A DNA stretch of 64,000 nucleotides. It comes from Flaviaesturariibacter aridisoli (GTDB lineage: Bacteria; Bacteroidota; Bacteroidia; Chitinophagales; Chitinophagaceae). The translations under genes and the position numbers were made by a program. Under the pieces are notes generated by a model that did no database searches, was not told where the DNA came from, and saw nothing but the letters and a program-made list of their open reading frames with translations. Location: assembly GCF_004343705.1 (NCBI RefSeq), contig NZ_SKFH01000001.1, positions 62,001-126,000 on the forward strand. Direction: 5' to 3'. The first letter of the stretch is position 1. Each line of letters starts with the position of its first letter. Positions 10,003 to 61,745 of the stretch are shown here, in pieces.

Positions 10003-12249
10003 ATGAGATCCTTCTCCCTTCTTTTCTGCCTCCTGCTGATCGCCGGCCTTGCCGGTGCCCAGCCCCTCAGCGGCACCGTACGCGATGCCCGGGGCGCAGC
10101 AGTTGCCGGCGCCAGCCTTACGATCAAAGGTTCCTACGACGGCGGAACCTCCGATTCCTCCGGGCGCTTCTCCTTTGCCAGCACCGAAAAAGGCGCCCAG
10201 GTGCTGCTGGTGTCGGCCATCGGCTATAAGTCGTGGGAAGGCCCGGTGCAGCTTACCGGCAGCCCGCTGCAGCTGTCGGTGCAACTGAAAGAGGAGGTAA
10301 CGGAACTGAAGGCCGTAGTGATCTCGGCCGGCTCCTTTGAAGCCAGCGACAAGAAAAAGACGACGGTGCTGAGCCCGATCGATATTGTCACCACGGCTTC
10401 GGCCCTCGCCGACGTTACCGGAGCCGTTAAGACGCTTCCGGGCGCGCAGCAGGTGGGAGAGAGCGAAGGCCTCTTCGTTCGTGGCGGCACGGCGCAGGAA
10501 ACAAAGACCTTTATCGACGGCACGCTCGTCAATAACTTCTTTTACAGCTCGGTGCCGAACGTGGCACAGCGCAGCCGCTTTTCGCCCTTTATTTTTAAAG
10601 GAACCGTATTCAGCGCCGGCGGTTACTCGGCCCTGTACGGGCAGGCCCTTTCGTCGGCACTCATCCTCGAATCGATCGACCTGCCCGAGCAAAGCTCCGG
10701 ACAGGTGGGCGTGTCGGTGCTGGGTGTGAGCGGCGGCCTCCAGAAGCTGTCGAAAAACAAGAAGGCTTCCTGGGGCGCTTCCTATGGCTACACCAATGTG
10801 GGCCTCGGCTTCGCGCTCATCAAGCTCCGCGACGAATACTTCGGTGTGCCGCAGTACCATACCGCCGACGCCAACTTCCGCATCAAGACCGGCCGCACGG
10901 GCATGCTGAAATACTACGGTTACTTCAGCTTCAACAAGCTGGGGCTGCGCCAGCAAAGCATCGACACGATCGGTTACAAAGACGCCTTCGCCCTGCGCAA
11001 CAACAACATGTACCACAACCTGTCGTGGCGCGGCTCGCTCGGCGGCCGCTGGAAGCTGCAGCTCGGCGCCTCCTATTCGACCAACCGCGACGACATCGAC
11101 GCGCAGCTGGTAGACGGGCAAAACGATCCGAAGATGGTCGCCGGCTTCGAGCAGAAGAACTTCGGCCTGGTTACGAAAGGCCGCTACATCAATGCGAAGG
11201 CCGTATTCGAATACCGCCTCCGCGGACTCAGCGCGCTCCGCCTGGGCAGCGAGTACAACTACAGCTCCGACCGCAGCGACTATACGCTTTTCAACGGGCA
11301 GCAATTCCCGAACGCGGTGACCGAGCACGGGAAGGCGCTCTTCGGGGAAGCCGATCTTTACATCACCAATGCGCTGGCAGCCCGCGTGGGCATGCGTGCC
11401 GAGCATTCCGCGCTGCTTGATAAAGTGAATGCGGCGCCACGCCTGTCGCTCGCCTACAAGGTGGGCAAGGAAGGACAGGCATCGCTGGCTTACGGTGAAT
11501 TTTACCAGACGCCCGAGCGCCGCTACCTGTCCGCGCCGGTAACGCTCGATTACGCCAAGGCTACGCATTACATTGCCCAATACCAGCGCGTGAGCCCGAA
11601 GCAAACGCTACGCACCGAAGTGTTTTACAAGAAATACCGCAGCCTGCTGAAGACGGGTGTGCTCCAAGGCCGCGAAACGGCTACCGGCACGGGCGGCTAC
11701 GGCGAGGCGGCGGGCTTTGAACTGTTCTGGCGCGACAAGCAGACCTTCAAGGGTCTCGACTACTGGATCTCGTATTCGTACCTCGACACAAAGCGCGACT
11801 ACCTCAATTTCCCCGCGGCGCTGGAGCCTTCCTTTGCGGCGAAGCACACGGCGTCGCTGGTGTTGAAGCGTTTTATCCCGGCCATCAAAACCGGCTTCAA
11901 CCTCTCGTATACGTACGCTTCCGGACGTCCCTACTACAACATCGGCTACGACAACGGCTCGGGCAAGTTCCAACTGACCGACGCGGGCCGCACCATCGAT
12001 TACCATAGTGCGTCGTTCAGCATGAACTACCTGCCGAAGCTGTTCTCCAAAGGCGCCGGCAAGAATACAGTGCTGGTGGCATCGGTCACCAATTTCCTGG
12101 GCAACAAGCAGGTGTATGGCTACAAGTATGCGCAGAACGGATCGCGGAAAGAGGCGATTACGCCGCCCACCAACATGTTCTTTTTCCTGGGTGCGTTTAT
12201 CTCCTTCGGCGTTGACCGCACGGAAGACATCATCAATAACAATCTTTGA
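10003..12249 (+). CDS. TonB-dependent outer-membrane receptor
   Basis: The 748-residue protein has a signal peptide (1-19, ending LAGAQ), a carboxypeptidase-regulatory-like beta-sandwich at about 21-105 (GTVRDARGAAVAGASL), a plug domain from about 115 to 225 (SPIDIVTTAS, GLFVRGGTAQETKTFIDG) and a 22-strand-type barrel to the C-terminus. It would import a siderophore, vitamin or glycan using TonB energy. The size is small for a SusC protein, no SusD partner follows, and the plug lacks the long SusC N-terminal extension, so it is a FecA/BtuB-like receptor rather than a SusCD system. The ligand cannot be told. A promoter of the phylum type lies just upstream, and a 7-bp repeat array begins at its TGA. 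Confidence 0.9.
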   Translation: MRSFSLLFCLLLIAGLAGAQPLSGTVRDARGAAVAGASLTIKGSYDGGTSDSSGRFSFASTEKGAQVLLVSAIGYKSWEGPVQLTGSPLQLSVQLKEEVTELKAVVISAGSFEASDKKKTTVLSPIDIVTTASALADVTGAVKTLPGAQQVGESEGLFVRGGTAQETKTFIDGTLVNNFFYSSVPNVAQRSRFSPFIFKGTVFSAGGYSALYGQALSSALILESIDLPEQSSGQVGVSVLGVSGGLQKLSKNKKASWGASYGYTNVGLGFALIKLRDEYFGVPQYHTADANFRIKTGRTGMLKYYGYFSFNKLGLRQQSIDTIGYKDAFALRNNNMYHNLSWRGSLGGRWKLQLGASYSTNRDDIDAQLVDGQNDPKMVAGFEQKNFGLVTKGRYINAKAVFEYRLRGLSALRLGSEYNYSSDRSDYTLFNGQQFPNAVTEHGKALFGEADLYITNALAARVGMRAEHSALLDKVNAAPRLSLAYKVGKEGQASLAYGEFYQTPERRYLSAPVTLDYAKATHYIAQYQRVSPKQTLRTEVFYKKYRSLLKTGVLQGRETATGTGGYGEAAGFELFWRDKQTFKGLDYWISYSYLDTKRDYLNFPAALEPSFAAKHTASLVLKRFIPAIKTGFNLSYTYASGRPYYNIGYDNGSGKFQLTDAGRTIDYHSASFSMNYLPKLFSKGAGKNTVLVASVTNFLGNKQVYGYKYAQNGSRKEAITPPTNMFFFLGAFISFGVDRTEDIINNNL

Positions 12250-12274
12250 TGTTGGATTTCAGATTTCAGATTCG
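12247..12274. repeat. Period-7 tandem repeat starting at the TonB receptor stop codon
   Basis: Four consecutive 7-mers run from the TGA: TGATGTT, GGATTTC, AGATTTC and AGATTCG. Just before the next gene (12289-12335) there is a second, looser array with recurring CTAAAC spaced 8-9 bp. Confidence 0.6.
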
Positions 12275-12341
12275 AGAGAAATTTTTGAAGCTCTGAACTC
12301 CTAAACGGACAAATCCTACTAAACCTCTAAACTTCGCTTAT

Positions 12342-12644
12342 ATGAACTACAACGACATTCCGCAAGACAAGGATCCGCACCTGTGGCGCATTGCGCGCCG
12401 GCGGGCCGGCTTCCGTCGCTCGCTGTTCACTTATCTTACCGTGAACGCCTTTCTGTGGGCCATCTGGTATTTCACCGGGGCGCGTTCCTACGGTGCCGGC
12501 GTTCCCTGGCCGGTGTGGCCGACGCTCGGCTGGGGCATCGGTATCGCCGCGCAGTGGTTCGGCGCTTTCGGTCCGGGCAGCAACCATGCCGACCCGGCTG
12601 AATCGGAATACCAGAAGCTGATGCGCGAGCGCGAAGGCCGCTGA
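12342..12644 (+). CDS. 2TM-domain small membrane protein
   Basis: The 100-residue protein has a basic N-terminus (IARRRAGFRRSLFTYLTVN), one helix at about 26-45 and a second at about 55-75 in GWGIGIAAQWFGAF, then a polar tail. This matches the short 2TM domain common in Bacteroidota, either alone or fused to histidine kinases. The role is unknown. It begins 92 bp after the TonB receptor and is followed by a secreted protein on the same strand. Confidence 0.75.
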   Translation: MNYNDIPQDKDPHLWRIARRRAGFRRSLFTYLTVNAFLWAIWYFTGARSYGAGVPWPVWPTLGWGIGIAAQWFGAFGPGSNHADPAESEYQKLMREREGR

Positions 12645-12734
12645 TCTCCAAGAACAACATAGGTGGCGGTGCTTCGTGCCGCTCCAAAATAAAAAAATCC
12701 GGCGCGCTGCGTCGTCAACACAAAAACAAAAACA

Positions 12735-13391
12735 ATGAAACAGATCCTTCTTCTTCTTGCCCTGTTCGTTTCGGGCGCTTCCTTTGCCCAGAGCGAGAAA
12801 TACGTGGCCGCCATGCAGCCGCGGGTTAACGCCTTCGACACGACCCGCAGCTTGAGCGGGCTCAACGATCTTTCGGCCGGCTTTGAGCGTATTGCCGAAG
12901 CGGAGAAAACGCAGTGGATTCCCTTTTACTACGCCGCGCTGGCCAAGGTAAGCAGCGGCTACTCGCTCACCGGCGGCAAGATGGGCGGTATGGCCGCACA
13001 GTTGGACCCCATTGCCGACAAGGCCGAAGAGTTGCTGAACAAGGCCGAAGCACTGAGCAAAGACAACTCCGAGATCTACGTTGTGCGCAAGATGATCGCT
13101 ACGCTGCGCATGATGGGCGACCCGATGAGCCGCTACATGACCTATGGACGCCAGGCCGGCGAGGCGCTGGAGACAGCGAAAAAGCTGAACCCCGACAACC
13201 CGCGCGTGTTGTACCTGGAAGGCCAGGACAAGTTTTTTACGCCGGCGCAGTTTGGCGGCAGCAAGGAAGAAGCCGTTGAACTCTGGAAAGAAGCCCTGAA
13301 AAAATTCGATAGCTTCAAGCCCGCCGACGCGCTTGCGCCACACTGGGGCCGTATAAATACGGAATACTTCCTGGCGCAGGCAGCGAAATAG
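12735..13391 (+). CDS. Secreted TPR-like protein
   Basis: The 218-residue protein has a signal peptide (MKQILLLLALFVSGASFAQ). The mature part is alpha-helical with repeat-like segments (ADKAEELLNKAEALSKDNSEI, AGEALETAKKLNPDNPRVLYLEG) that resemble tetratricopeptide units. Such proteins act as periplasmic scaffolds. It reads as a conserved Bacteroidota protein without an assigned function. It may be in an operon with the 2TM gene (90-bp gap). A 172-bp palindromic element follows. Confidence 0.65.
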   Translation: MKQILLLLALFVSGASFAQSEKYVAAMQPRVNAFDTTRSLSGLNDLSAGFERIAEAEKTQWIPFYYAALAKVSSGYSLTGGKMGGMAAQLDPIADKAEELLNKAEALSKDNSEIYVVRKMIATLRMMGDPMSRYMTYGRQAGEALETAKKLNPDNPRVLYLEGQDKFFTPAQFGGSKEEAVELWKEALKKFDSFKPADALAPHWGRINTEYFLAQAAK

Positions 13392-13395
13392 CGAA

Positions 13396-13567
13396 GAGAA
13401 AGAACGCAGATCTTTTATGATTTCTACGATTAGCGCAGATTCTTTAGTACTGTTCTTTCAGTAGAAAGGCCCTATAATCGTAGCAAAAATCCGATTGCCT
13501 ATAGGAATAGCAAAAAGAGAAAATCATTTATCAGCTGATGAATCCTACAAAATCTGCGTTCTTTCTC
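13396..13567. repeat. Long intergenic palindromic element
   Basis: Perfect 16-bp arms (GAGAAAGAACGCAGAT at 13396-13411 and its complement at 13552-13567) bound a 140-bp AT-rich interior with further imperfect pairing, including a repeated CGCAGAT word and CCTATA/TATAGG. It fills the spacer between two plus-strand genes. Confidence 0.65.
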
Positions 13568-13590
13568 TCTCACGATTCACTATAGAAACT

Positions 13591-14172
13591 ATGCAACCAA
13601 ACTTCACGCCCGACGACAGCCTTGCGCTGATCCACACGATGATCCGGAAAACGCGCTCCAACCTGGGCGCGAACCGGTTTTACTTCCTCTTCTGGGGCTG
13701 GGTAGCTTTCGGGGCGCTCGTGGCCCAGTTTATCCTGAAGGTGCTGGTGCACTACCCGCGGCACTACCAGGTGTGGTGGGTGATCGTGCCGGCGGTGATC
13801 ATCACGATGATCCGCACAAGGCGCCACAGCCGCGCGGGTGCGCGCACCTATGTGGGCGAGTCGATGAGCGCGCTCTGGATGGGCGTAGGCATCTCCTTCT
13901 TCGTGCTTTCGTTTCTCATCGCGCAGCTGCCCGGCGGCTTCCTGCACGCCTACCCGTTCTATATCCTGTTTTACGGCCTCGGCACCTTCATCTCCGGGCG
14001 CCTGCTGCACTTTCGTCCACTCGTGGCAGGCGGCCTGATCAACTGGGTGCTGGCGATGATCTGCATCTTTGTGCCCTACGATTACCAGATGCTGCTGACG
14101 GCGCTGGCCATTCTCTGCAGCTACATTATTCCCGGGTACCTGCTGGGCCGTAGCAAAACTGAAGTACTATGA
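13591..14172 (+). CDS. Membrane protein, first of a paralogous pair
   Basis: The 193-residue protein has a short amphipathic N-terminus (DSLALIHTMIRKTRSN) and five or six hydrophobic helices. The next gene encodes a protein with the same opening pattern (ESLKLITDMIGKARRN) and a similar hydrophobic profile, so the two are tandem paralogs. I set the start at 13591; the open frame reaches 13495 but that part lies in the palindromic element. The stop overlaps the next start as ATGA. The downstream winged-helix regulator in the same operon suggests a self-regulated membrane module of unknown function. Confidence 0.7.
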   Translation: MQPNFTPDDSLALIHTMIRKTRSNLGANRFYFLFWGWVAFGALVAQFILKVLVHYPRHYQVWWVIVPAVIITMIRTRRHSRAGARTYVGESMSALWMGVGISFFVLSFLIAQLPGGFLHAYPFYILFYGLGTFISGRLLHFRPLVAGGLINWVLAMICIFVPYDYQMLLTALAILCSYIIPGYLLGRSKTEVL

Positions 14173-14846
14173 ACGAGCAACCCATGAACGAGCAGGAGAG
14201 CCTGAAGCTTATTACCGACATGATCGGGAAGGCAAGGAGGAACTTTCACGAAACCGGCACCAGCGCTATTCTTTGGGGCAGCGTCATCGCTTTTTGCGGG
14301 CTTATGAGCTTCGCGCAGCAACGCGCCCACTTTTACATCGGCTTCGACGTGTGGCTGCTGACATTGGCGGCGCTGCTGCCCCAGGTGATCATCAGCGTCC
14401 GGGAGGCGCGCCAACGCCGCGTGCGCACGCACACGCAGGAGGCATTGAACGCGGTGTGGCAGGTATATGGATTAAGCCTCTTTGCCCTCGTCTTTTATTG
14501 CAATACCGTCGGTGCTGTAGAGGCGGCGCGCCTGTCGGCCGAAGGAGCGGAGCTTTATCAAAAGGTAAACGGCGAGCTGCGCGTCGTGCAACCGCGGATC
14601 CCCAGCTACGGCAGCCTGCTGATCCTGCTCTACGGGATCCCGACGCTGGCCACCGGTATCGCGCAGCGCTTTCGGCCCATGCTGGTGGGCGCCATTTTTT
14701 GCTACACGTTCTTCATCATCTCCTGCTATACCGACAACACCTGGGATCTGCTGCTCAACGGCCTTGCCGGCATCGCCAACTGGCTCGTCCCCGGGCTTAT
14801 CTTGCGCGCCCGCTACAGGAACGAGAACCGTACCCTTCATGTTTAA
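14169..14846 (+). CDS. Membrane protein, second of a paralogous pair
   Basis: The 225-residue protein shares the N-terminal helix and layout with the product of the preceding gene and has about five hydrophobic helices. A longer polar loop around residues 110-145 is specific to this copy. It is coupled to both neighbours: an ATGA overlap upstream and an 8-bp overlap with the regulator gene downstream. No known family was recognised. Confidence 0.7.
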   Translation: MNEQPMNEQESLKLITDMIGKARRNFHETGTSAILWGSVIAFCGLMSFAQQRAHFYIGFDVWLLTLAALLPQVIISVREARQRRVRTHTQEALNAVWQVYGLSLFALVFYCNTVGAVEAARLSAEGAELYQKVNGELRVVQPRIPSYGSLLILLYGIPTLATGIAQRFRPMLVGAIFCYTFFIISCYTDNTWDLLLNGLAGIANWLVPGLILRARYRNENRTLHV

Positions 14847-15123
14847 AGACCTCGATCCCATATTGCACTCGCAGCTGCGGCTCGCCGTCATGTCGCTCCT
14901 CATCGGGGTGAAGGAGGCGGAGTTTATTTTCCTGCGCGAGCAAACGGGCTCCACGGCCGGCAACCTGAGCGTGCAGGTGCAAAAGCTCAAAGAGGCCGGT
15001 TACATCGAGGTGACGAAGCAGTTCAAAGACAACTACCCCCAGACGCTCTGCAAGATTACGCCGAAAGGGGTCGATGCGTTTGAGGCCTATGTGAAGGCGC
15101 TGCAGGGATATATCAGGAAGTAG
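14839..15123 (+). CDS. Winged-helix transcriptional regulator (HTH_34/MarR-ArsR-like)
   Basis: The 94-residue protein is a bare winged helix: helices at LRLAVMSLLIGVKEAEFIFLRE, recognition helix around GNLSVQVQKLKEAGYIEV and a wing at KDNYPQTLCKITPKG. This is the short HTH_34 type found in Bacteroidota next to integral membrane genes. It overlaps the upstream membrane gene by 8 bp, so it is translated with the pair and probably controls it. No cofactor residues are visible beyond one Cys in the wing. Confidence 0.85.
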   Translation: MFKDLDPILHSQLRLAVMSLLIGVKEAEFIFLREQTGSTAGNLSVQVQKLKEAGYIEVTKQFKDNYPQTLCKITPKGVDAFEAYVKALQGYIRK

Positions 15124-15155
15124 GAAAGTGGGAAGTCGGAAGTCGGAAGTGGAAG
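15121..15155. repeat. Period-7 tandem repeat starting at the regulator stop codon
   Basis: Five 7-mers run from the TAG: TAGGAAA, GTGGGAA, two copies of GTCGGAA and GTGGAAG. A complementary family (unit ACTTCCG) occurs 9.7 kb away just before rsmA. Confidence 0.75.
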
Positions 15156-15173
15156 GCCGGCTGTAGTGCAGGG

Positions 15174-15197
15174 TGCCGCGTAGCGGCGTTTTTTTTT
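15174..15197 (+). terminator. Intrinsic terminator
   Basis: GCCGC and GCGGC pair around a GTA loop and are followed by nine T residues. It ends the membrane pair and regulator operon. Confidence 0.8.
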
Positions 15198-15339
15198 ATT
15201 GCCTCGGGCTTAAAGAAACCATCAACAGGCAGGTTACTTATCGTGTAACGGGCTGCCCTGCTGAATTCCCCCGGCTTTAACAACCTTTCTTCTTCTCCGG
15301 TTGTTACACCAGCAAGGCCCCGGCCTAGCTTTGCAACGC

Positions 15340-24818: not shown

Positions 24819-24853
24819 ACTTCCGACTTCCCACTTCCGACCTCCTAACTTTG
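24819..24853. repeat. Period-7 tandem repeat running into the rsmA -7 box
   Basis: Five 7-mers: ACTTCCG, ACTTCCC, ACTTCCG, ACCTCCT and AACTTTG. The last one overlaps TAACTTTG (24846-24853), a perfect TAnnTTTG -7 element that ends 5 nt before the rsmA ATG. Confidence 0.7.
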
Positions 24854-31711: not shown

Positions 31712-31746
31712 CCAACTACAAACTACAAACTACAAACTAAAAACTA
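31712..31746. repeat. Period-7 tandem repeat that includes the MFS stop codon
   Basis: On the minus strand five 7-mers begin with the TAG stop itself: TAGTTTT, three copies of TAGTTTG and TAGTTGG. Because 7 leaves remainder 1 when divided by 3, the TAGs fall in all three frames. Confidence 0.85.
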
Positions 31747-33126
31747 AAAACCCGCCTCCCGCTGCTTTCTGAGGGTCAGCCAAAGACCGATCAACCCGAG
31801 TGCGAAGAACAGCACCAGCGTCAGCACGGAGTTGCGTTGCGAGCCGGTCAGCTCGTTGATGATGCCGAAGGAAAACATGCCGATCACGATGGCGATCTTT
31901 TCGGTGACGTCGAAGAACGAGAAGAAGGACGTTGTGTCTTTGGTTTCGGGCATCAGTTTCGAGTAGGTGCTTCGGCTCAGGCTCTGGATGCCGCCCATCA
32001 CGAAGCCTACGGCTACGGCGAGCCCGTAGAAGCTCATGACGCAGCGGTCGTTGTCGGGGTGCGTGGCGCTGTGCGCAGGCAGGGCGTAGCCGGCGATGCA
32101 GCAACCGATCCAGAACAGCACGCAGACCATCAGGGCCTTCAGGTTGCCGATGCGGGCCGAGAGCCTCGAGATGAGCAGGGCGCCCGGGATGGCGATGAGC
32201 TGGATCACCACGATGGCGATGATCAGGTTCTGGGTGGGGATCTTGAGCTCGCCTTTGCCGTAGAGCGTGGCCGCGAGCATAACGGTCTGCACCCCCATAT
32301 TGTAAAAGAAAAAGGATCCGAGGTAGCGCTTCAGAACGGGGATGTGCGACAGTTGGGCGAACACTTTACGAAGCTCCTGGTAGCCCGCCAGCAGGGCGGC
32401 CTTGGGTACGTTGCGCACCTGCCGGCGCGGCAGGCGCCTCAGGGGCAGCAGCGCAAAGCCGAACCACCAGAGGGCCACCGCGAGGAAGGAGATCCGAGCG
32501 CCCAGCGTGCCTTTCGGAATGCCGAAAAGATCGGGCTTCATCACGAACAGGAAGCAGATGATCTGCAGCAAAACCGAGCCTACGTAGCCGAACGAAAAGC
32601 CGCGGGCCGAGATGCGGTCGCGGTCCTGCGGCGCGGCGATCTCGGGCAGGTAGGAATTGTAAAAAACGAGGCTGGCCCAATAACCCACGCAGGCTACGAT
32701 CATCGAGGCGATCCCAAGAAAGAGGAAGTGCGGTGTGCCGCGGTCGAAGAAAAAGAGCGAGGCGCAGGCCAGCGAGCCCATGGTCATGAAGAAGCCCATG
32801 AACGACTTCTTGTTGCCACGCGTGTCGGCGATGGAAGAAAGCAGCGGCGACACAAGCGCCACGATGAGAAAGGCCACCGCGAGGGCGTAGTTGTATAGCG
32901 AGGTATTCACGAAGCTGCGGCCAAGGAAGGTCACATGGTCGATGGTCTGCTCGTTGTCGTCGCCGGTGATGGCCTCGTAATAAGCCGGGAAGATGGTGGA
33001 GGTGATTACGAGGTTGTAGGCGCTGTTGGCCCAGTCGTACATCGCCCAGGCATTGACCACCTTTTTGGGCGCGGTGACCTGCGTTGTGCCTTCGAGGATG
33101 CCGGGAGCAGCGACAGTAGTTTCCAT
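31744..33126 (-). CDS. MFS transporter, UMF1/Atg22-like
   Basis: The 460-residue protein has twelve predicted membrane helices and the family opening VVNAWAMYDWANSAYNLVI, which is diagnostic of the UMF1 (Atg22-like) major-facilitator group. The central loop is basic (LRRLPRRQVRNVPKAALL) and a QSLSRSTYSKLMP motif follows helix 10. Fungal Atg22 exports amino acids from vacuoles; bacterial substrates are not known. A TACTTTTA -7 element lies 18 nt before the ATG. Confidence 0.88.
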   Translation of the reverse strand: METTVAAPGILEGTTQVTAPKKVVNAWAMYDWANSAYNLVITSTIFPAYYEAITGDDNEQTIDHVTFLGRSFVNTSLYNYALAVAFLIVALVSPLLSSIADTRGNKKSFMGFFMTMGSLACASLFFFDRGTPHFLFLGIASMIVACVGYWASLVFYNSYLPEIAAPQDRDRISARGFSFGYVGSVLLQIICFLFVMKPDLFGIPKGTLGARISFLAVALWWFGFALLPLRRLPRRQVRNVPKAALLAGYQELRKVFAQLSHIPVLKRYLGSFFFYNMGVQTVMLAATLYGKGELKIPTQNLIIAIVVIQLIAIPGALLISRLSARIGNLKALMVCVLFWIGCCIAGYALPAHSATHPDNDRCVMSFYGLAVAVGFVMGGIQSLSRSTYSKLMPETKDTTSFFSFFDVTEKIAIVIGMFSFGIINELTGSQRNSVLTLVLFFALGLIGLWLTLRKQREAGF

Positions 33127-34415: not shown

Positions 34416-34518
34416 TGAATAATGTCTAATATTTATTGAATATTGAATAACGCCGGCGCAGAGGCCTGCTTATTCTGCATACATTATTCAATGGACTTTA
34501 TTCAATCGTTATTATTCA
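34416..34518. repeat. Inverted pair of period-7 arrays between ftsX and DUF3098
   Basis: On the minus strand the right array starts with the ftsX stop: TGAATAA recurs three times at 14-bp spacing in 34484-34518. The left array (34416-34450) has five 7-mers of the same family in the opposite orientation and ends 18 bp before the DUF3098 start. A GC-rich middle (CGCCGGCG) separates them. Confidence 0.8.
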
Positions 34519-35388
34519 ATACAACTCGTCCAGCTTCATCTTCAGGTATTTCAGCACGCTGCGGTAGGTGCTCAGCACGGTGATGCTGACGCCGATGACG
34601 AGGAGTCCGAGGAACAGGAGCAGGAACAGCTGACTGTCGAACAGGGCGTTGAAACCGGGGATGAAGTTTTCGGCCAGCAGGATGAGGCCGTACACGGCAG
34701 CGGTGGCGATGGCGGCGGCTACGGCGCCGTTCACCACGGCCCGCAGCGCCAGCGGGCGGGCGATAAAGCCGCGGGTGGCGCCCACCATCTGCATGGTTTT
34801 AATCAAAAACCGGTTGGAGAACATCGCCAGGCGGATGGTGTTGTCGATGAGGATGATCACCAGCACGCTCACCACCACCACAATCACCAGCAGCACCAGC
34901 GATACGTTGCGGAAGCTGCGTTGCATTGAGCCCACGGCCACGCGCGAATACTGCACCTCGTCTACGTTGGGATTATGCTGGAGGCGCGCCTTGATGGCAC
35001 CCAGCTGCGCGGAATCCACGAATTCCTCGCGCAGGTTGAAGTTGATGGAGGAGGGGAGGAGCGAATTTTCGAGAAACTCCGAAAAGTCCTCGTTGCCGCT
35101 CTTCAGCCACTGGCGCTTCGCTTCTTCCTTGTCTACGTAGCGCACGCTTTTCACCCCCGCCATGGCGCCGATGCTGTCCTGCAGGGCCGCGCGCGCCGTT
35201 TCGGGCGTGGTGGGCTTCAGGTACACCTGCACTTCCACGCTTTCCTTGATCTGCTGCATCACTTTCTTGGCGTTGATGCCCAGCCAGCCGAGGATGCCCA
35301 GGAGGAATAACACCAGGGTCACGCCGAGGACCGACATGAAGTAAGAAGGTTTGCCGCGTTTGAGGGAAGCTTTGCCGGATTGTGCCAT
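34516..35388 (-). CDS. ftsX: Cell division ABC transporter permease-like protein FtsX
   Basis: The 290-residue protein has a cytoplasmic N-terminus, helix 1 (SVLGVTLVLFLLGILGWLG), a large periplasmic domain (residues 40-165) with the SVEVQVYLKP start, and three C-terminal helices with the conserved FLIKTMQMVGATRGFI loop. FtsX with FtsE activates cell-wall hydrolases at the septum. It heads the unit with DUF3098 and uppP. TATTTTTG, a good -7 element, is about 20 nt upstream. Confidence 0.94.
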   Translation of the reverse strand: MAQSGKASLKRGKPSYFMSVLGVTLVLFLLGILGWLGINAKKVMQQIKESVEVQVYLKPTTPETARAALQDSIGAMAGVKSVRYVDKEEAKRQWLKSGNEDFSEFLENSLLPSSINFNLREEFVDSAQLGAIKARLQHNPNVDEVQYSRVAVGSMQRSFRNVSLVLLVIVVVVSVLVIILIDNTIRLAMFSNRFLIKTMQMVGATRGFIARPLALRAVVNGAVAAAIATAAVYGLILLAENFIPGFNALFDSQLFLLLFLGLLVIGVSITVLSTYRSVLKYLKMKLDELY

Positions 35389-50391: not shown

Positions 50392-52521
<2,130 letters not shown>

Positions 52522-53057: not shown

Positions 53058-53145
53058 AAGGTTTTGAAGGTACTTCAGGTTCTCCGGGTTGGCAGGTCCC
53101 TGTTACCAATAAACCAATAGACTACTAGACCAATCGGCCAAATCG
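53058..53145. repeat. Period-9 then period-8 arrays in the tsaE-ald spacer
   Basis: Four 9-mers follow tsaE (AAGGTTTTG, AAGGTACTT, CAGGTTCTC, CGGGTTGGC; 53058-53093), and five 8-mers precede the ald gene (CCAATAAA, CCAATAGA, CTACTAGA, CCAATCGG, CCAAATCG; 53106-53145). Confidence 0.6.
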
Positions 53146-53185: not shown

Positions 53186-54400
53186 ATGATGCACAGTAAG
53201 CCGATTGTCAGCCCCTCCTTTAGTTACGAAACCCTCGAGGAAACCCTTGACATCAAGCCCAAAGGCGCCCAGCTCCACATCGGGATGCCGAAAGAGATCG
53301 CCTTCCAGGAAAACCGGATCGCACTGACGCCCGACGCGGTGGGCGTGCTGGTGAGCAACGGCCATACCGTGACCATCGAGCACAACGCCGGTGAAGGCGC
53401 TCACTTTGCCGACCGCGACTACAGCGAGGCCGGCGCCCGCATTGCCTACGAGCGCGCGGAAGTATACAAGTGTCCCATCCTGGTCAAGAGTGCGCCTGTC
53501 ATCGACGAGGAAGTGCCGCTGCTGCAGATGAACCAGCTGATCATCTCGCCCCTCCACCTGAGCCTGCTGAAGGCGGAGTTACTGCAGAAGATGATGGAGA
53601 AGCGCATCACGGCCATCTCTTTTGAAAACCTCAAGGACGATTCCGATTCCTACCCCATCGTGCGGAGCATGAGCGAGATCGCCGGTTCGGCGGTGATGCT
53701 GATCGCGGCGCAGTACCTCGGCTCGTCCAACAAGGGCAAGGGGGTGCTGCTCGGTGGTATTTCGGGCATTGCGCCCACCAAGGTGATCATCATCGGCGCC
53801 GGCATCGTGGGCGAATACGCTGCCCGTACCGCCATCGCCCTCGGCGCTTCCGTGAAGGTGTTCGACAACAGCGTGTACCGCCTCAAGCGCCTGCAGAACA
53901 ACATTGGCCACCGGCTGTGGACCTCCGTGCTGGAGCCGCGGATGCTGGCCAAGCAGCTCAAGACCTGCGAAGTGGCCGTGGGCGCACTCTCCAGCGAAGC
54001 GGGCCGTACGCCCATCGTGGTCACCGAGGAAATGGTGAGCAACATGCGCACCGGCTCGGTCATCATCGACGTGAGCATCGACCGCGGCGGCTGCTTTGAA
54101 ACCTCCGAGATCACCACGCACGAATGCCCCATCTACACCAAGTACGGCGTCATTCACTACTGCGTGCCCAACATTCCCTCGGGTTTTGCGCGCACGGCCT
54201 CACAGGCCATCTCCAACGTGCTGATGCCCCTGCTGCTGGAAGCCGGCGAAGACGGCGGCTTTGAACGCATGGTGTGGCACAACGTGCACCTGCGCAGCGG
54301 CATTTACCTGTTCAAAGGGGCTTTAACGAATTTTTACCTGAGCGAACGGTTTCATTTGAAATTTACTGACCTTAATTTACTGATTGCATCGCAGCGATAG
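53186..54400 (+). CDS. ald: Alanine dehydrogenase
   Basis: The 404-residue protein has the N-terminal substrate domain (IGMPKEIAFQENRIALTPDAV, including the conserved Arg and Lys), the NAD-binding motif IIIGAGIVGEYAARTAI and the C-terminal DVSIDRGGCFETSE and VPNIPSGFARTAS signatures. It interconverts alanine and pyruvate plus ammonia with NAD. The N-terminal extension of about 30 residues is longer than in most Ald proteins. Tandem ATGs are at 53186; a TTG at 53153 gives a longer form. A 7-bp repeat array starts at its TAG. Confidence 0.92.
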   Translation: MMHSKPIVSPSFSYETLEETLDIKPKGAQLHIGMPKEIAFQENRIALTPDAVGVLVSNGHTVTIEHNAGEGAHFADRDYSEAGARIAYERAEVYKCPILVKSAPVIDEEVPLLQMNQLIISPLHLSLLKAELLQKMMEKRITAISFENLKDDSDSYPIVRSMSEIAGSAVMLIAAQYLGSSNKGKGVLLGGISGIAPTKVIIIGAGIVGEYAARTAIALGASVKVFDNSVYRLKRLQNNIGHRLWTSVLEPRMLAKQLKTCEVAVGALSSEAGRTPIVVTEEMVSNMRTGSVIIDVSIDRGGCFETSEITTHECPIYTKYGVIHYCVPNIPSGFARTASQAISNVLMPLLLEAGEDGGFERMVWHNVHLRSGIYLFKGALTNFYLSERFHLKFTDLNLLIASQR

Positions 54401-54527
54401 AAGTTTGGAGTTTATAGTTTGAAGTTTATAGTTGTCGTAAATTGACGATCTGACCTTCAGCTAAGCGACTCCGAAAATCACACGCGCCTGAACAACTTAA
54501 CTACAAACCATAAACTGTAAACTAAAA
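54398..54527. repeat. Inverted pair of period-7 arrays filling the ald spacer
   Basis: From the TAG stop: TAGAAGT, TTGGAGT, TTATAGT, TTGAAGT, TTATAGT (54398-54432). Near the next start, on the same strand in complementary orientation: ACTACAA, ACCATAA, ACTGTAA, ACTAAAA (54500-54527). The spacer between arms is 67 bp, and the right arm ends 11 bp before the next ATG. Confidence 0.85.
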
Positions 54528-54538
54528 ACGTCTCCGAC

Positions 54539-55558: not shown

Positions 55559-55574
55559 TGACGAAATCCAAATT

Positions 55575-56198
55575 ATGGCCTACAACGAAAAGCAATTGCA
55601 GATCATCCGCACCGCCGAGGCCCTCTTCGCGCAGAAGGGGTACGACGGCGCCTCCGTGCGTGATATCGCCGAGGCGGCCGGGGTGAACAGCGCCATGATC
55701 TCCTATTATTTCGGTTCGAAGGAAGGCCTCATCAAGGCCCTCTTCGAGGAGCGCACCGCCGACATCGCGCTGAAGGTGGACACCCTGCTGCGCGATGCGT
55801 CGAAGACGCCCTGGGAAAAAGTGGCGTGCCTCATTGATGACTACGTGGAGCGCATTGCCAACAAGGTGCAGTTTCACAAGATCATGATGTACGAGCAGAT
55901 GCTCGAGAAGAATACCCTGCTCACCGAGCTGCTCAACGAGCTCCGCCTGCGTAATGCCGACAAGATCCGGGTGTTGTTGCAACAGGGGCAGGACAGCGGC
56001 GACTTTGCCGCCGGCATCGACGTGCAGATGCTCATGTTCACGCTCTTCGGCACGGTCACCAATGCGTACTTCAACCGGGAGTTCTACCGCGAGGCGCACG
56101 GCCTGCAGGGGCTCGACGAGGTGGCCTTCCAGCTCGAATTCCGCAACCGCATCCGCAACCATATCCAGCAATTATTCAAAGCACTATTAGCAAAATGA
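55575..56198 (+). CDS. TetR-family regulator of an efflux operon
   Basis: The 207-residue protein has the TetR helix-turn-helix (QIIRTAEALFAQKGYDGASVRDIAEAAGVNSAMISYYFGSKEGL) and an alpha-helical ligand domain. Its TGA overlaps the ATG of the outer-membrane factor gene, so it is part of the operon it should repress. Confidence 0.94.
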   Translation: MAYNEKQLQIIRTAEALFAQKGYDGASVRDIAEAAGVNSAMISYYFGSKEGLIKALFEERTADIALKVDTLLRDASKTPWEKVACLIDDYVERIANKVQFHKIMMYEQMLEKNTLLTELLNELRLRNADKIRVLLQQGQDSGDFAAGIDVQMLMFTLFGTVTNAYFNREFYREAHGLQGLDEVAFQLEFRNRIRNHIQQLFKALLAK

Positions 56199-57526: not shown

Positions 57527-57546
57527 CACAACTCCGAAAAGATATC

Positions 57547-58656
57547 ATGGCACAAGAAGTAACGACAACCACTACCGAACAGGCGCCCAAGAAGCGCAGC
57601 AAAGTATTCCTCATCGTACTGATCCTGCTGGTGCTCGCCGGCGGCGCCTTCGGACTCACGAAGTACAACCACGCGCAGCACCACGAGGAGACCGACAACG
57701 CCCACGTGGAGGCGAACATCAGTCCCGTCATTCCGCGGATCGGCGGCTACATCGCCGACGTGCGGGTGAAAGACAACCAGCATGTGAAGAAGGGGGACAC
57801 CCTCATCGTGCTCGACGACCGCGACCTGCGCCTGAAGGTGCAGCAGGCCGAAGCTGCCCTGGCCAACGCGCAGAGTGCCCTCGGCGTGGCCGAGGCCAGC
57901 ACCCGCGCCGCCAAAGCCAACATCGGCACCTCGCGCGCCGCCGTGGAAACCATCGACGCGCAGATCGAAACGGCCCGGGTGAACGTGTGGCGCACGCAGA
58001 AAGACTACGAACGCTACGCCAACCTGGTGCAGGATCATTCCGTAACGCAGCAGCAATATGAGCAGGCACTCGCCGCCAAGCAGACCGCCGAGCGCCAGCT
58101 CCGCGTGCTGCAGGAGCAGCGCCAGCAGGCCGCTTCGCAGACGTCGGCCGTCGGCGCACAGAGCGGCGCCACGGGTGCGCAGGTGCCGGTCGCTTCTACC
58201 GTCATCCAGCAGCGCCGCGTTGATGTGGAGAATGCGAAGCTCAATCTTTCCTACGCCGTGGTGACGGCCCCCGAAGACGGCCTCGTGTCGCGGGTGACCG
58301 TGCAGTCGGGCCAGTTTGTACAGCCCGGCCAACAGCTCTTCGCCATCGTGCTCAACAACCAGACCTGGATCGTGGGCAACTTCAAGGAAACGCAGCTCGA
58401 TAAAATGAAAGTTGGCCAGAAGGTGATCGTGCATGCGGATGCCTTTCCCGGTCACGATATCGAGGCGCGCGTTGCTTCCTTCTCGCCCGGCACCGGCTCT
58501 TCGTTTGCCCTGCTGCCGCCCGACAACGCCACCGGCAACTTCGTGAAGGTGGTGCAGCGCGTGCCCGTGCGCATCGAGTTCGCCAACCCGCAGGATCCCC
58601 TGCTGCAGCAGCTGCGCGCCGGTATGAACGTGGAGCTGGACGTGCACCTGGACTGA
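57547..58656 (+). CDS. EmrA/HlyD-family membrane-fusion protein
   Basis: The 369-residue protein has one N-terminal helix (VFLIVLILLVLAGGAFGL), a lipoyl/barrel-sandwich domain (NISPVIPRIGGYIADVRV, KGDTLIVLDDRDLRLKV) and a long coiled coil (residues 95-190) with TVIQQRRVDVENAKLNLSYAVVTAPEDGLVSRV closing the barrel. It links the MFS pump to TolC. The gene starts 20 bp after the tolC-like stop. Confidence 0.93.
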   Translation: MAQEVTTTTTEQAPKKRSKVFLIVLILLVLAGGAFGLTKYNHAQHHEETDNAHVEANISPVIPRIGGYIADVRVKDNQHVKKGDTLIVLDDRDLRLKVQQAEAALANAQSALGVAEASTRAAKANIGTSRAAVETIDAQIETARVNVWRTQKDYERYANLVQDHSVTQQQYEQALAAKQTAERQLRVLQEQRQQAASQTSAVGAQSGATGAQVPVASTVIQQRRVDVENAKLNLSYAVVTAPEDGLVSRVTVQSGQFVQPGQQLFAIVLNNQTWIVGNFKETQLDKMKVGQKVIVHADAFPGHDIEARVASFSPGTGSSFALLPPDNATGNFVKVVQRVPVRIEFANPQDPLLQQLRAGMNVELDVHLD

Positions 58657-58764
58657 TGTACCCAACGGGCGGTCGGCAACAATGGGTGACGCACAGGCTC
58701 CTTTGTATAGACGCACTATGTGCGCCTCTTTTGACGCACTTGCTGCGTCGCCACAAATGAATAT

Positions 58765-60354
58765 ATGCTACAACAAGAATCTTTAGTTGAATATGGCGGG
58801 CGGCGCGTGATCATCACGATCACGGCGATCGTGTGCGCCCTGCTCGAGATCGTGGACAGCACCATCGTGAACGTGGCACTGACACAGATGCAGGGTTCCC
58901 TCGGCGCCACCCTCAGCGAAGTGAGCTGGGTGATCACCGCCTATGCCATCGGCAACGTGATCATCGTGCCGATGACGAGTTGGCTGGCGCAGCAGTTCGG
59001 GCGCCGCAACTACTTCGCGGCCTCCATCATCCTGTTTACGGTGTGTTCGTACCTCTGCGGACAGGCCACGGGTATCGGTGAGCTCGTGCTCTTCCGCTTC
59101 CTGCAGGGCATCGGCGGCGGCGCGTTGCTGGTGACCTCGCAAACGATCATCACCGAAAGCTACCCGCCCGAGAAGCGCGGTATGGCGCAGGCCATCTACG
59201 GCCTCGGCGTTATCATCGGTCCCACGCTGGGGCCGCCGCTCGGCGGCTATATCGTAACGAACTCCACCTGGCCTTATATCTTTTACATCAACATTCCGCT
59301 CGGTATCATCGCCACCCTGCTCACCCTGCAGTTTGTGCGCAGCCCGCGCTACGGCGGCGGCGCCAAAAGCAAGGCGAAAGACGTGGACTGGCTGGGCATC
59401 GGGCTGCTGGCCATTTCGGTAGGCTCGCTGCAGTATGTGCTGGAAAAGGGGCAGGAAGAAGACTGGTTCAACAACCTGACCATTATCATGCTGACGGTAA
59501 CGGCCGTCTTCGGCTTCTTCTTCTTCATCTGGCGGGAGCTCACGTTCCGCAACCCGATCGTAGAACTACGGGTGCTCAAGAACGGTAACCTGCGCCTCGG
59601 TACGGTGATGTCGTTCATCCTCGGCTTCGGTCTTTACGGCTCCACTTTCCTGATACCGCTCTACACGCAGTCGATCCTTGGGTGGACGGCACAGCAGTCG
59701 GGCGAGCTGATGATCCCCGCGGCACTGACGACTGCCTTCATGATGCCCATTATCGGGCAGATGCTGCAGCGCGGCGTAAAGCAGCAGTACCTCGTGGCGC
59801 TCGGCATGATGATCTTTTTCATCTACAGCTTCTGGGCCTACAAGATCCTGACGCCCGACACCGGCAAGGAAAACTTCTTCTGGATGCTCATCTTCCGCGG
59901 CCTCGGCATGGGTATGCTGTTCATTCCCATCACCACCCTGTCGCTCTCTACACTGAAGGGCCGGCAGATCGGCCAGGGCGCTGCCTTTACGGGTATGATG
60001 CGCCAGCTCGGCGGCTCCTTCGGCATTGCGCTGATCACGACCTACCTGTCGCGGCAGATCCAGGTGCACCGCGCCAACCTGGTGACTTACCTCAACCTGA
60101 ACGACCCCGATGTGCAGCAGCGCGTCAACGGGCTGAAGCAGAAGTTCATGGCCACGGGCAAGTCGCCCGACCAGGCGCTGGCAATGGCCTACCGCGCCCT
60201 CGAGGGAACGGTGATGAAACAGGCATCGGTGCTGTCGTATATGGACGCCTTCCTTATCCTCGGTGTGCTCTTCCTCATCTGTATTCCCTTCGTGCTCTTT
60301 GTGCGCCAGCGCAAGCAGCAGGGCAAGGTGGACCTGAGCGAAGCGATGCACTGA
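58765..60354 (+). CDS. DHA2-family multidrug MFS transporter (EmrB-like)
   Basis: The 529-residue protein has fourteen predicted helices and the DHA2 motifs DSTIVNVALTQMQGSLG, TSWLAQQFGRRNYF and GIGGGALLV. It exports hydrophobic drugs or other toxic compounds through the pump formed with the two preceding proteins. A 108-bp gap with small hairpins (GACGCA/TGCGTC) separates it from emrA. A period-7 array begins at its TGA. Confidence 0.94.
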   Translation: MLQQESLVEYGGRRVIITITAIVCALLEIVDSTIVNVALTQMQGSLGATLSEVSWVITAYAIGNVIIVPMTSWLAQQFGRRNYFAASIILFTVCSYLCGQATGIGELVLFRFLQGIGGGALLVTSQTIITESYPPEKRGMAQAIYGLGVIIGPTLGPPLGGYIVTNSTWPYIFYINIPLGIIATLLTLQFVRSPRYGGGAKSKAKDVDWLGIGLLAISVGSLQYVLEKGQEEDWFNNLTIIMLTVTAVFGFFFFIWRELTFRNPIVELRVLKNGNLRLGTVMSFILGFGLYGSTFLIPLYTQSILGWTAQQSGELMIPAALTTAFMMPIIGQMLQRGVKQQYLVALGMMIFFIYSFWAYKILTPDTGKENFFWMLIFRGLGMGMLFIPITTLSLSTLKGRQIGQGAAFTGMMRQLGGSFGIALITTYLSRQIQVHRANLVTYLNLNDPDVQQRVNGLKQKFMATGKSPDQALAMAYRALEGTVMKQASVLSYMDAFLILGVLFLICIPFVLFVRQRKQQGKVDLSEAMH

Positions 60355-60480
60355 TGTCGTGAGGCGTGAGGCGTCAGCCGTGAGCGCGCATTGCGCGGTA
60401 ATAGAAAGAACGGATGCCAAAGGCATCCGTTCTTTATTAAAGGCGAAAGCAACTCACGGCTGACGCTTCACGCCTCACGT
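60352..60480. repeat. Inverted pair of period-7 arrays with nested terminator
   Basis: From the TGA: TGATGTC, two copies of GTGAGGC, GTCAGCC, GTGAGCG (60352-60386). Complementary units CTCACGG, CTGACGC, TTCACGC, CTCACGT lie at 60453-60480. Arms match over 27 bp with one mismatch. Confidence 0.88.
60405..60435. terminator. Intrinsic terminator nested in the array pair
   Basis: AAAGAACGGATGCC and its exact complement form a 14-bp stem with an AAA loop ending in TTTA. Confidence 0.9.
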
Positions 60481-60564
60481 TTGTTATTCTTTCGTGAAAG
60501 CCCGTTCCGCGCCGCACCCATTTACCGGCCGGGACTATCTTGGTTACTCACGAAACGCTTACTT

Positions 60565-60999
60565 ATGAAGACAGCTTTACTCTGGGCGCTGTGCCTGCTG
60601 CCCGCATTTTCCTTCGCACAAAAGATCAAGATCAGCAAAGGCCGCGTGTCGGTGGACGGCCGGCCTTCCTTTCGCTATGAGAAAGACGGCTGTGGGATCG
60701 GCTACGGCAACTGCGACTACCAGGTGTACGACACCGCAGGCAACCGGGTACTCCGCATTGTGCAGAAAAGCCGCCACGTGCGGGTAACGCCGCAAAACAG
60801 CAGCGGCACGGAAACCTACCTCGAATTTATTTTCCTGCAATCGCGGCAGGTGGCCTGGGTGGATGACGTAACCCCCTGGGAACGGCGCGTGGTCAACTAC
60901 ATCGCCAAGAACCACCTGTTTGTGAACGGCAAGCTCGACGAAGCCGCCGTTGACGAATTCCTCCTCGTGCACGGGGAAGAAGCGCAGCGACGGCATTGA
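60565..60999 (+). CDS. Small secreted protein, function unknown
   Basis: The 144-residue protein has a signal peptide (MKTALLWALCLLPAFSFAQ) and a body with two Cys in DGCGIGYGNCDYQVYD, perhaps a disulfide, and a helical tail. It ends one base before the convergent membrane gene. No family recognised. Confidence 0.6.
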   Translation: MKTALLWALCLLPAFSFAQKIKISKGRVSVDGRPSFRYEKDGCGIGYGNCDYQVYDTAGNRVLRIVQKSRHVRVTPQNSSGTETYLEFIFLQSRQVAWVDDVTPWERRVVNYIAKNHLFVNGKLDEAAVDEFLLVHGEEAQRRH

Positions 61000-61000
61000 A

Positions 61001-61618
61001 TCAATGCAGGAAAAAGTTCAGGATGCCCACGAGGATCAGCACAATGCCGCTGATCCTTTTTTCGTTGTGCTCGATGAAGTGGGCCGACAACAGCTTCACG
61101 CCGCGGTGGCCGAGCGTAACCAGCAGGAGGATGCCACTGATGCTGATAATGGCATAGAGCAGCGACAGGAACGTAACGAAGCCCATGCCGTAAGCACCCG
61201 CCGACAGGAACAGGCTTTCCACTTCGAGGCAGGGCGAGAGAAACATCATCACGATAAAGATGAAGATCCATTTGCCGCGGCTCCGCCGGAAGCCCTTCAC
61301 GTCCTTGTCTTCGTGGTGGTGATGGTGCGGCAGGTTGACGGTATAATACACAAGGCCGAACACGATGAGCAGCACCGAGGCTGCCACGTTGATCACATGA
61401 CCGTATTCTTCCCGCAGGTTTTTGCCGATAAGCCCCAGCACGTAGCCCAGCCCGACAGTGCCCAGCACGTGGGCGAGCGCCGCCAGGAACGTGATGGCCG
61501 TCACCTCGCGGGCTTTCCAGCCTTCAGAACGCGCCACGGCCACCAGGGGCAGCCAGTGATTCGGGATCAGGGCGTGCACGAAAGCGAGGAGTATGGTGCC
61601 GGCTACGACGGTGAACAA
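61001..61618 (-). CDS. His-rich polytopic membrane protein (RcnA/NiCoT-like topology)
   Basis: The 205-residue protein has five or six helices, a conserved HALIPNHWLPLVAVAR at the N-terminus and the cytoplasmic His cluster LPHHHHHEDKD between helices. Such a loop recalls nickel/cobalt transporters of the NiCoT/RcnA type, so metal transport is likely but the ion is unknown. The start is probably the TTG at 61618: the longer open frame to 61690 runs through a 7-bp repeat array. The AraC gene upstream, with a Cys cluster, may control it. Confidence 0.65.
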   Translation of the reverse strand: MFTVVAGTILLAFVHALIPNHWLPLVAVARSEGWKAREVTAITFLAALAHVLGTVGLGYVLGLIGKNLREEYGHVINVAASVLLIVFGLVYYTVNLPHHHHHEDKDVKGFRRSRGKWIFIFIVMMFLSPCLEVESLFLSAGAYGMGFVTFLSLLYAIISISGILLLVTLGHRGVKLLSAHFIEHNEKRISGIVLILVGILNFFLH

Positions 61619-61626
61619 GACGGGAG

Positions 61627-61745
61627 GTTTACAGTTTATAGTTTGAGGGTTCCAGTTAAAGCGCTGTGCTGATTTGCAGCGAGGTTGCAATATACAGCCA
61701 TTCCCCTAACTATAAACCATAAACTACAAACTTCCTGAAGGGTTA
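61627..61745. repeat. Inverted pair of period-7 arrays between an AraC gene and the membrane gene
   Basis: On the minus strand, from the TAA stop of the AraC gene: TAACCCT, TCAGGAA, GTTTGTA, GTTTATG, GTTTATA, GTTAGGG (61704-61745). On the plus strand near the next start: GTTTACA, GTTTATA, GTTTGAG, GGTTCCA (61627-61654). The two arms are complementary. Confidence 0.85.

What the first reader, a model, noticed from the sequence alone, without database searches (positions are those of the whole stretch)
12247..61745. Period-7 tandem repeats that begin at stop codons, often paired as inverted arms across the spacer
Seven or more genes are followed directly by degenerate 7-mer arrays: TonB receptor (12247), winged-helix gene (15121), MFS (31746, minus), ftsX (34518, minus), ald (54398), EmrB-like gene (60352) and AraC gene (61745, minus). 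In the MFS and ftsX cases the stop codon is an exact part of the repeated unit (TAGTTTG, TGAATAA). Four spacers carry a second, complementary array ending 10-20 bp before the next gene. Units differ between loci but arms at a locus are complementary, so a fixed transposed sequence does not explain them; local duplication or template-directed copying might. Short 7-bp repeats are known from cyanobacterial intergenic STRRs, but I know of no account of stop-codon anchoring.
Basis: partly seen in the sequence, partly recalled or inferred. Interest (0 to 1): 0.82.

Follow-up and report, generated by a model that had tools for sequence, protein, structure and literature searches.

The report
Mirrored seven-base repeats at gene edges
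In this bacterium and its relatives, many gaps between genes are bordered by short repeated DNA words, often mirrored on the two sides, whose spelling can differ between related species while the place stays, which makes them a good natural case for asking how such DNA is written and whether it does anything.

Summary
In 1.17 Mb of the window's genome (a Flaviaesturariibacter relative, Chitinophagaceae) 134 period-7 arrays lie in 740 spacers, against 0.6 expected; periods 8-10 occur too, 5-6 hardly. Arrays sit at gene edges: 125 of 226 stop-nearest ones lie within 5 nt of the stop or overlap it; 66 of 190 start-nearest ones lie 6-15 nt before the start. Where both sides carry arrays, 74 of 108 pairs are inverted copies of one unit family, against 11% for random pairing. 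Orthologous spacers tend to keep arrays (odds ratios 4-7), yet the family or period may differ on both sides, in one clear case around a conserved interior (AraC spacer). Arm mismatches show no G.U excess on the coding strand (76 vs 76) while terminator cores do (118 vs 43), so the arms are not visibly selected as RNA helices. Stop-proximal, strand-polarised, inverted heptads kept at orthologous sites were already described in Xanthomonas (PMC4692102), so anchoring is not new. New here: many families per genome, 5 of 416 arrays quadruplex-capable, paired swapping. Best reading: DNA-level arrays renewed by slippage and template switching, pruned at gene edges.

The parts
12255..12272 (+). post-stop period-7 array, unit GATTTCA; the opposite side of the spacer before 12342 is degenerate
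15123..15150 (+). post-stop period-7 array, unit GGAAGTS, begins at the last base of the stop codon
24731..24752 (+). period-8 array TTGGTTAA inside the spacer; the stop-side half of this spacer is conserved in G016 and, seen through G016, in G010
24819..24845 (+). pre-start period-7 array ACTTCCS, 13 nt before the next gene; different families in both relatives
31714..31749 (-). post-stop period-7 array TAGTTTG after the MFS/Atg22-like gene; the stop codon is its first unit
34434..34449 (-). distal arm of the ftsX spacer, unit TTGAATA/TATTCAA; similar units in G016 and G010
34481..34520 (-). post-stop arm after ftsX, TGAATAA recurring every 14 nt
53105..53141 (+). period-8 array ACCAATAG, 47 nt before the alanine dehydrogenase gene
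54402..54433 (+). post-stop arm after alanine dehydrogenase, GTTTNTA family
54499..54529 (+). pre-start arm complementary to 54402-54433; the orthologous spacer in F. flavus has unrelated arms
60358..60385 (+). post-stop arm, GTGAGGC family, outer stem around a terminator-like core
60405..60435 (+). terminator-like core hairpin inside the arms
60453..60479 (+). complementary arm of 60358-60385
61627..61644 (-). arm of the AraC spacer on the start side of the next minus-strand gene, GTTTACA/GTTTATA
61645..61707 (-). interior of the AraC spacer with TTGCAAC...GCTGCAAA, alike in G016 and G010
61708..61732 (-). post-stop arm of the AraC gene, GTTTATA family; GGTTCTGG period 8 in F. flavus

Best explanation
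The arrays are DNA-level tandem repeats with units of 7-10 nt that are born and renewed at the margins of spacers by replication slippage and by template switching: across the spacer, which yields inverted arms, and between loci, which spreads a unit family. Selection acts mainly as a filter. Arrays may fill a spacer up to the stop codon on one side and up to the translation-initiation region on the other. G-rich sense strands are kept out of leaders, which are G-poor in these genomes. Shown: enrichment, edge position, polarity near edges, family-level mirroring, family differences on both sides at orthologous sites, and no sign of RNA-helix selection. Inferred: slippage and template switching as the writing mechanism, and ectopic copying as the way families spread.
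For: Sharp lower limit of unit length: over three species period 5 gives 3 arrays, 6 none, 7 gives 282, 8 gives 123, 9 gives 24, 10 gives 23 (sums; keeping only the best period where arrays overlap, 3, 0, 280, 122, 23 and 21). In coding sequence scaled to spacer length period-7 arrays number 1.39, 0.23 and 0.28. 74 of 108 two-sided spacers are inverted same-family pairs against 11% for random pairing; only 3 are direct. Families differ in abundance between species (GTTTGTA 39/9/0, GTGAGGC 33/9/0, GGTTCTGA 0/0/17 in G000/G016/G010). In 6 of 13 two-armed orthologous comparisons (5 distinct spacers) both arms belong to another family in the other species. The AraC spacer keeps its interior while both arms differ between G000 and F. 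flavus. Mismatches in arms of tandem spacers: G.U 76, A.C 76, against 118 and 43 in terminator-like cores. Leaders without arrays are G-poor (GC skew -0.23 to -0.26 in the last 20 nt), fitting the start-edge polarity of 70 to 4 (78 arrays, 4 equal) in tandem spacers.
Against: Arm lengths within a locus are uncorrelated and unit-order agreement is modest, so direct mirroring is not demonstrated. Polarity is as strong in convergent spacers (44 to 5, 6 equal, within 15 nt of the stop), where no leader constraint acts, and array-free post-stop sequence has almost no GC skew, so polarity at stops is not explained; farther than 15 nt from the stop in tandem spacers it is lost or reversed (5 to 9 and 14 to 21). 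31 of 108 two-sided spacers have unrelated arms that mostly seem to keep the polarity (by eye). Interior conservation with swapped arms on both sides is clear in one spacer only; 10 of 20 comparisons with different families show little or no interior likeness. Site conservation with odds ratios of 4-7 could mean function rather than tolerance.
Confidence: 0.42

Rival explanations
1. Functional RNA hairpins: the arms pair in read-through transcripts to terminate transcription, stabilise 3' ends or insulate neighbouring genes, and are kept for that.
For: Stable nested folds, e.g. z = -13.9 for 60352-60490 and -3.5 for 54398-54532; some arms surround terminator-like cores; array sites are conserved between species.
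Against: No G.U over A.C excess on the coding strand in arms (76 vs 76), against 118 vs 43 in terminator cores. No association with terminators in spacers of 80-300 bp: 35 of 189 tandem array spacers carry a terminator-like hairpin against 122 of 503 without arrays; convergent 30 of 42 against 84 of 131. Arrays also lie in divergent spacers (49 of 330, sums). In 191 of 323 array spacers no partner arm scored 12 or more.
Confidence: 0.15
2. Non-autonomous mobile palindromes (foldback- or MITE-like), each family mobilised as a whole element with arms and loop.
For: Families differ in abundance between species; some GTGAGGC-family spacers share a core palindrome; half of the differing-family orthologous spacers have unlike interiors; a few array-free orthologous spacers are shorter by about an element, e.g. 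116 vs 24 bp with a span of 115; seven Y1 (REP-type) transposase matches in the genome, and one of the three whose flanks could be examined, on C11, has inverted GTTTGTA arrays in both adjacent spacers.
Against: In the AraC spacer the interior is alike between species while both arms differ. Orthologous spacers without arrays are on the whole not shorter by an element: medians 137 vs 118.5 bp (62 cases), while 18 of the 27 spans of spacers with two or more arrays are 80-140 bp. By eye the transposase genes on C5 and C11 sit among other palindromes.
Confidence: 0.18
3. Slippage arrays that arise independently on each side, with family resemblance due only to a biased pool and polarity due only to selection on leaders.
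For: Arm lengths uncorrelated; 31 of 108 two-sided spacers have unrelated arms.
Against: Same-family inverted pairing is six times the random rate, with 3 direct against 74 inverted; polarity also holds in convergent spacers.
Confidence: 0.2

Closest known systems
GGGAATC heptad repeats of Xanthomonas and GGGGA(C/T)T repeats of Nostoc (PMC4692102; passages and section 15 read)
   Same: Heptad units with constant and variable positions; preferably between tandem genes; sense strand near the stop, antisense strand upstream of genes; [quoted passage not shown]
   Different: One G-rich family per genome, linked to G-quadruplexes; here many families with periods 7-10, 5 of 416 arrays with a G3 quadruplex motif (109 of 416 with the weaker G2 motif), and family differences at orthologous sites.
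Heptad-built P6b stem of the Nostoc tRNA-Leu(UAA) intron, classes TDNGATT and NNTGAGT (PMC4476775; passages read)
   Same: Complementary heptad arms within a conserved intron; whole-stem replacement of one heptad class by another; gain or loss of units on one side.
   Different: A single intron locus under RNA-folding constraint; here hundreds of spacers and no sign of RNA-helix selection.
TAACTGA repeats of Beggiatoaceae, Cyanobacteria and five Bacteroidetes (PMC4679880; passages read)
   Same: Intergenic heptads with preferred orientation to starts; in Flexibacter litoralis a reversed set directly after a stop.
   Different: One unit only, one indirect repeat in the main genome studied; TAACTGA x3 is absent from this genome.
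REP palindromes and RAYT transposases (PMC3733652; passages read)
   Same: Intergenic palindromes often near or overlapping genes; GTAG ends may supply the TAG stop codon.
   Different: Short fixed palindromes with a tag; here tandem arrays of variable unit.
Cyanobacterial STRR and long simple sequence repeats (recalled, and as cited in PMC4679880 and PMC4692102)
   Same: Heptads are the commonest longer unit; polymerase slippage proposed.
   Different: Edge anchoring and arm pairing not compared here.

Membership tests
Xanthomonas-type stop-proximal heptad repeats (PMC4692102) | tandem 7-nt units with constant and variable positions | tested here: met
   (also periods 8-10)
Xanthomonas-type stop-proximal heptad repeats (PMC4692102) | preferred strand relative to nearby stop and start | tested here: met
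Xanthomonas-type stop-proximal heptad repeats (PMC4692102) | inverted pairs | tested here: met
   74 of 108 two-sided spacers
Xanthomonas-type stop-proximal heptad repeats (PMC4692102) | G-quadruplex-forming units | tested here: not met
   5 of 416 arrays with a G3 motif
TAACTGA repeats | unit TAACTGA | tested here: not met
   0 matches to three units in G000
Intrinsic terminators | pairing maintained as RNA on the transcribed strand | tested here: not met
   G.U 76 = A.C 76 in arms; 118 vs 43 in terminator cores
Intrinsic terminators | preference for gene ends over divergent spacers | tested here: inconclusive
   tandem 241 of 1048, convergent 56 of 265, divergent 49 of 330 spacers with arrays (sums)
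REP/RAYT elements | association with Y1 transposase genes | tested here: inconclusive
   7 matches; flanks of 3 examined, 1 with arrays of the same family in both adjacent spacers
Foldback/MITE elements | insertion of arms and loop as one unit | tested here: inconclusive
   AraC spacer and spacer lengths speak against it; unlike interiors in 10 of 20 comparisons leave it open
Foldback/MITE elements | target-site duplication | not tested
   no close strain was available
Rfam RNA families | match to a curated family | tested here: not met
   0 matches in the window at gathering threshold

The most novel reading that the evidence does not exclude
A dedicated or inherent DNA-writing activity in Chitinophagaceae rewrites both margins of a spacer in concert with a new unit family and period, leaving the regulatory interior intact, so that an architecture is inherited while its sequence is not. 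The activity would tell inward from outward at gene edges by strand.
Probability: 0.13. Interest if true: 0.85.

Novelty: new variant of a known kind. Interest (0 to 1): 0.5.

Why it matters
Heptad repeats in bacterial spacers have been discussed family by family (quadruplexes, protein sites). Here the geometry (gene-edge anchoring, strand polarity, mirrored arms, conserved sites) holds across many unit sequences and periods, so its cause should lie in something other than the unit's sequence. That makes a concrete question testable in culturable relatives such as Flaviaesturariibacter flavus: how are inverted short-unit arrays written, and why do units begin at 7 nt?

Tried and rejected
Stop codons in all frames as the reason for polarity: several families (GATTTCA, GTTCAAT, GGAAGTC, GTCAAAA) have no stop in the inward reading, judged by eye, so not general. 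G-quadruplexes: 5 of 416 arrays with a G3 motif. Terminator function. Insertion into short operon-type spacers as the cause of edge hugging: only 6 of 62 array-free orthologous spacers are under 40 bp. REP transposases: inconclusive. Leader composition as sole cause of polarity: fails in convergent spacers. Stop codon as a regular part of the unit: 14 of 109. Exact mirror copying: arm lengths uncorrelated. Rfam: nothing.

Limits: genes were called with my own hexamer-based script, so start positions are approximate. The three-species sets are samples (1.17, 0.73 and 0.79 Mb), not whole genomes. Spacers under 40 bp were left out of most counts (under 60, under 80); spacers over 450 bp were left out (arms), and over 300 bp. 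Array thresholds (score 7-11) differ between calls. The majority orientation of each family was set after the fact, so small families say little. One search printed its counts (5 of 20 differing-family and 7 of 14 same-family interiors above 19 random pairings) and then stopped with a script error; the alignments were redone. On checking, one search replaced one search's test: the differing-family set there includes three comparisons that are the same or related families by eye or at a laxer threshold (AB C1 42176, AB C1 123618, AD C1 42576). I lowered the best explanation from 0.45 to 0.42 and the novel case from 0.15 to 0.13, and raised the mobile-element rival from 0.15 to 0.18, because the conserved-interior case rests on fewer spacers than I first wrote.
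Full report
What was checked. The seven claimed sites were read and the arrays are there. The window lies in contig C1 of a 4.37 Mb genome whose nearest relatives by alanine dehydrogenase are Chitinophagaceae of the Flaviaesturariibacter group. Genes were called with a hexamer model on contig stretches. In 491 spacers of at least 40 bp, 99 period-7 arrays were found in 78 spacers, against a mean of 0.45 in Markov-simulated spacers (20 runs, maximum 2); periods 5, 6, 12 and 13 gave 2, 0, 1 and 0. Keeping only the best period where arrays overlap changes little. E. coli gave none in 70 spacers. One 18-mer of the GTTTATA family with up to 2 mismatches occurs 121 times in the genome and its reversed control never. 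In 75 loci of over 8 kb from Chitinophagaceae, the two close relatives included, 818 spacers held 68 period-7 and 33 period-8 arrays against 1 and 3 of periods 5 and 6, and 27 of the 75 loci had two or more arrays of period 7-10 (75 of 80 loci), so the phenomenon is not confined to this genus.

Where they sit. Lag-7 identity in the 60 bp after stops has z = 24.3, 15.7 and 14.3 in the three species, before starts 9.7, 8.4 and 4.7; lag 4 is also raised after stops in two of three (9.6, 4.9), which I did not follow. Of 226 stop-nearest arrays 125 lie within 5 nt after the stop or overlap it (55%); over all 416 arrays 36% lie within 5 nt of an edge, where uniform placement gives 18%; of 190 start-nearest arrays 66 lie 6-15 nt before the start. 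Arrays occur in 241 of 1048 tandem, 56 of 265 convergent and 49 of 330 divergent spacers (sums). The stop codon itself is fully in phase with the unit in 14 of 109 cases, against 5.6 with random stops; TAG is used in 37 of these 109 against 386 of 1578 gene ends overall.

Polarity and families. Read inward from the nearest gene edge, the large families have a preferred orientation: GTTTGTA 43 to 5, GTGAGGC 39 to 3, GATGTCT 28 to 6, GGTTTATT (period 8) 26 to 2, GATTTCA 20 to 6, GTGAATC 20 to 0. In base terms, within 15 nt of the edge, G-rich to C-rich: tandem stops 78 to 22 (106 arrays), tandem starts 70 to 4 (78), convergent stops 44 to 5 (55), divergent starts 9 to 5 (14). Farther than 15 nt from a tandem stop it is 5 to 9 and 14 to 21, so polarity belongs to the stop edge; at starts it persists at larger distance. 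Families differ in abundance between species: GTTTGTA 39/9/0, GTGAGGC 33/9/0, GGTTCTGA 0/0/17.

Pairing. In 108 spacers with arrays on both sides, 74 are inverted copies of one family, 3 direct, 31 unrelated; random left-right pairing within species gives 11% inverted. Arms of a locus match each other only somewhat better than arms of the same family at other loci of the same genome (18.96 vs 17.53, percentile 0.61, Wilcoxon p = 0.003, n = 79), and lengths are uncorrelated (n = 74). Folding of 60352-60490 gives -90.6 kcal/mol against -41.7 for shuffles, with a terminator-like core inside the heptad stem. But a symmetric alignment of the 132 of 323 spacers with a partner arm shows, on the coding strand of the 90 tandem ones, 76 G.U and 76 A.C mismatches, whereas 294 terminator-like cores in tandem spacers show 118 G.U and 43 A.C (p = 3e-9). 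Selection on RNA pairing is visible for cores and not for arms. Arrays are also not associated with terminators.

Evolution. Among 81, 119 and 63 orthologous spacer pairs, arrays co-occur with odds ratios 7.0, 4.4 and 6.1 (p = 0.001, 0.0009, 0.006); with the shorter spacer of 80-400 bp they are 7.3, 4.7 and 7.0; the smallest length class (40-80 bp) is not significant in any pair. Of 42 shared sites 14 have the same family (6 of 12, 3 of 19, 5 of 11; random 6-8%). Thirteen comparisons have two matching arms in both species, and in 6 of these (5 distinct spacers) both arms belong to different families in the two species, for example GGAAGTC period 7 against GGTAATGC period 8. In the AraC spacer of the window the interior TTGCAAC...GCTGCAAA is alike in all three species while the arms are GTTTATA, GTTTTCA/GTTTACA and GGTTCTGG. 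Over 20 comparisons with different or weakly similar families, the non-array part scores above all of 38 other spacers in 4, is reached by one of 37-38 in 6 (in some of these the one is the same spacer in the third species; I did not check each), and is unremarkable in the other 10, which include the swapped spacers at C1 15119, C1 31163 and C11 7495. In several of the alike cases the conserved stretch lies beside the arrays, not between two arms (C1 86651, C1 42576, C5 17177), so the AraC spacer is the one clear case of both arms differing around a conserved interior. Orthologous spacers without arrays are mostly not short (median 118.5 vs 137 bp, 62 cases), which speaks against insertion of whole elements as the rule.

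Reading. These facts fit arrays written at DNA level at spacer margins, in families that spread between loci, with selection removing those that invade genes or make leaders G-rich. Shown: distribution, position, polarity, pairing, family differences at shared sites. Inferred: slippage, template switching, ectopic copying. Unexplained: polarity at stops, convergent spacers included, and the sharp onset at 7 nt. A functional hairpin or a mobile element remains possible.

What is known. PMC4692102 (passages, section 15) describes in Xanthomonas the same geometry for one G-rich heptad and links it to quadruplexes; that link cannot hold here (5 of 416). PMC4476775 (passages) describes whole-stem replacement of one heptad class by another in one Nostoc intron. 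PMC4679880 (passages) describes oriented TAACTGA repeats, including five Bacteroidetes, and cites the slippage proposal for heptads. PMC13155455 (passages) reports that inverted repeats in bacteria peak 50-80 bp after stops and attributes this to terminators. I found no account of multi-family arrays swapping at orthologous sites in ten literature searches of an open-licence library; most subscription papers were not searched.

Noticed in passing
window 13391-13445 and about 13500-13575: A dispersed palindromic element (AGAGAAAGAACGCAGAT...ATCTGCGTTCTTTCTCT) fills this spacer; its first 55 bp have 19, 25 and 23 matches in the sampled parts of G000, G016 and G010, and 25 of 40 matches with a stop behind them begin within 20 nt of it. 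It may be a frozen relative of the arrays with a period near 10.
   Followed up: partly
spacers of G000 and G016, after stops: Lag-4 identity after stops is raised too (z = 9.6 and 4.9; 0.2 in G010), unexplained.
   Followed up: no
L136:2508-2604: A long GGGAGAC/AGGAGAC array 2 nt after a gene in another Chitinophagaceae genome.
   Followed up: no
G000 contig C11:104986-105052 and 105940-105998 (in L225): Two long period-8 arrays TCTCGTTC near a Y1 transposase gene.
   Followed up: no
G000 contig C1:209653-210343 (in L041): A spacer with overlapping direct repeats of about 100-180 bp at 86-91% identity.
   Followed up: no
G000 contigs C5:42788, C11:102962, C10:127203 and four others: Seven Y1 (REP-type) transposase matches; by eye those on C5 and C11 lie among palindromes such as CACCTCTTCGAGGTGC, unlike the heptad arrays.
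   Followed up: partly
G084 contig C1 (L267, L269-L276): Another Bacteroidota genome carries 24 overlapping exact TAACTGA x3 matches, the unit known from Beggiatoaceae.
   Followed up: no
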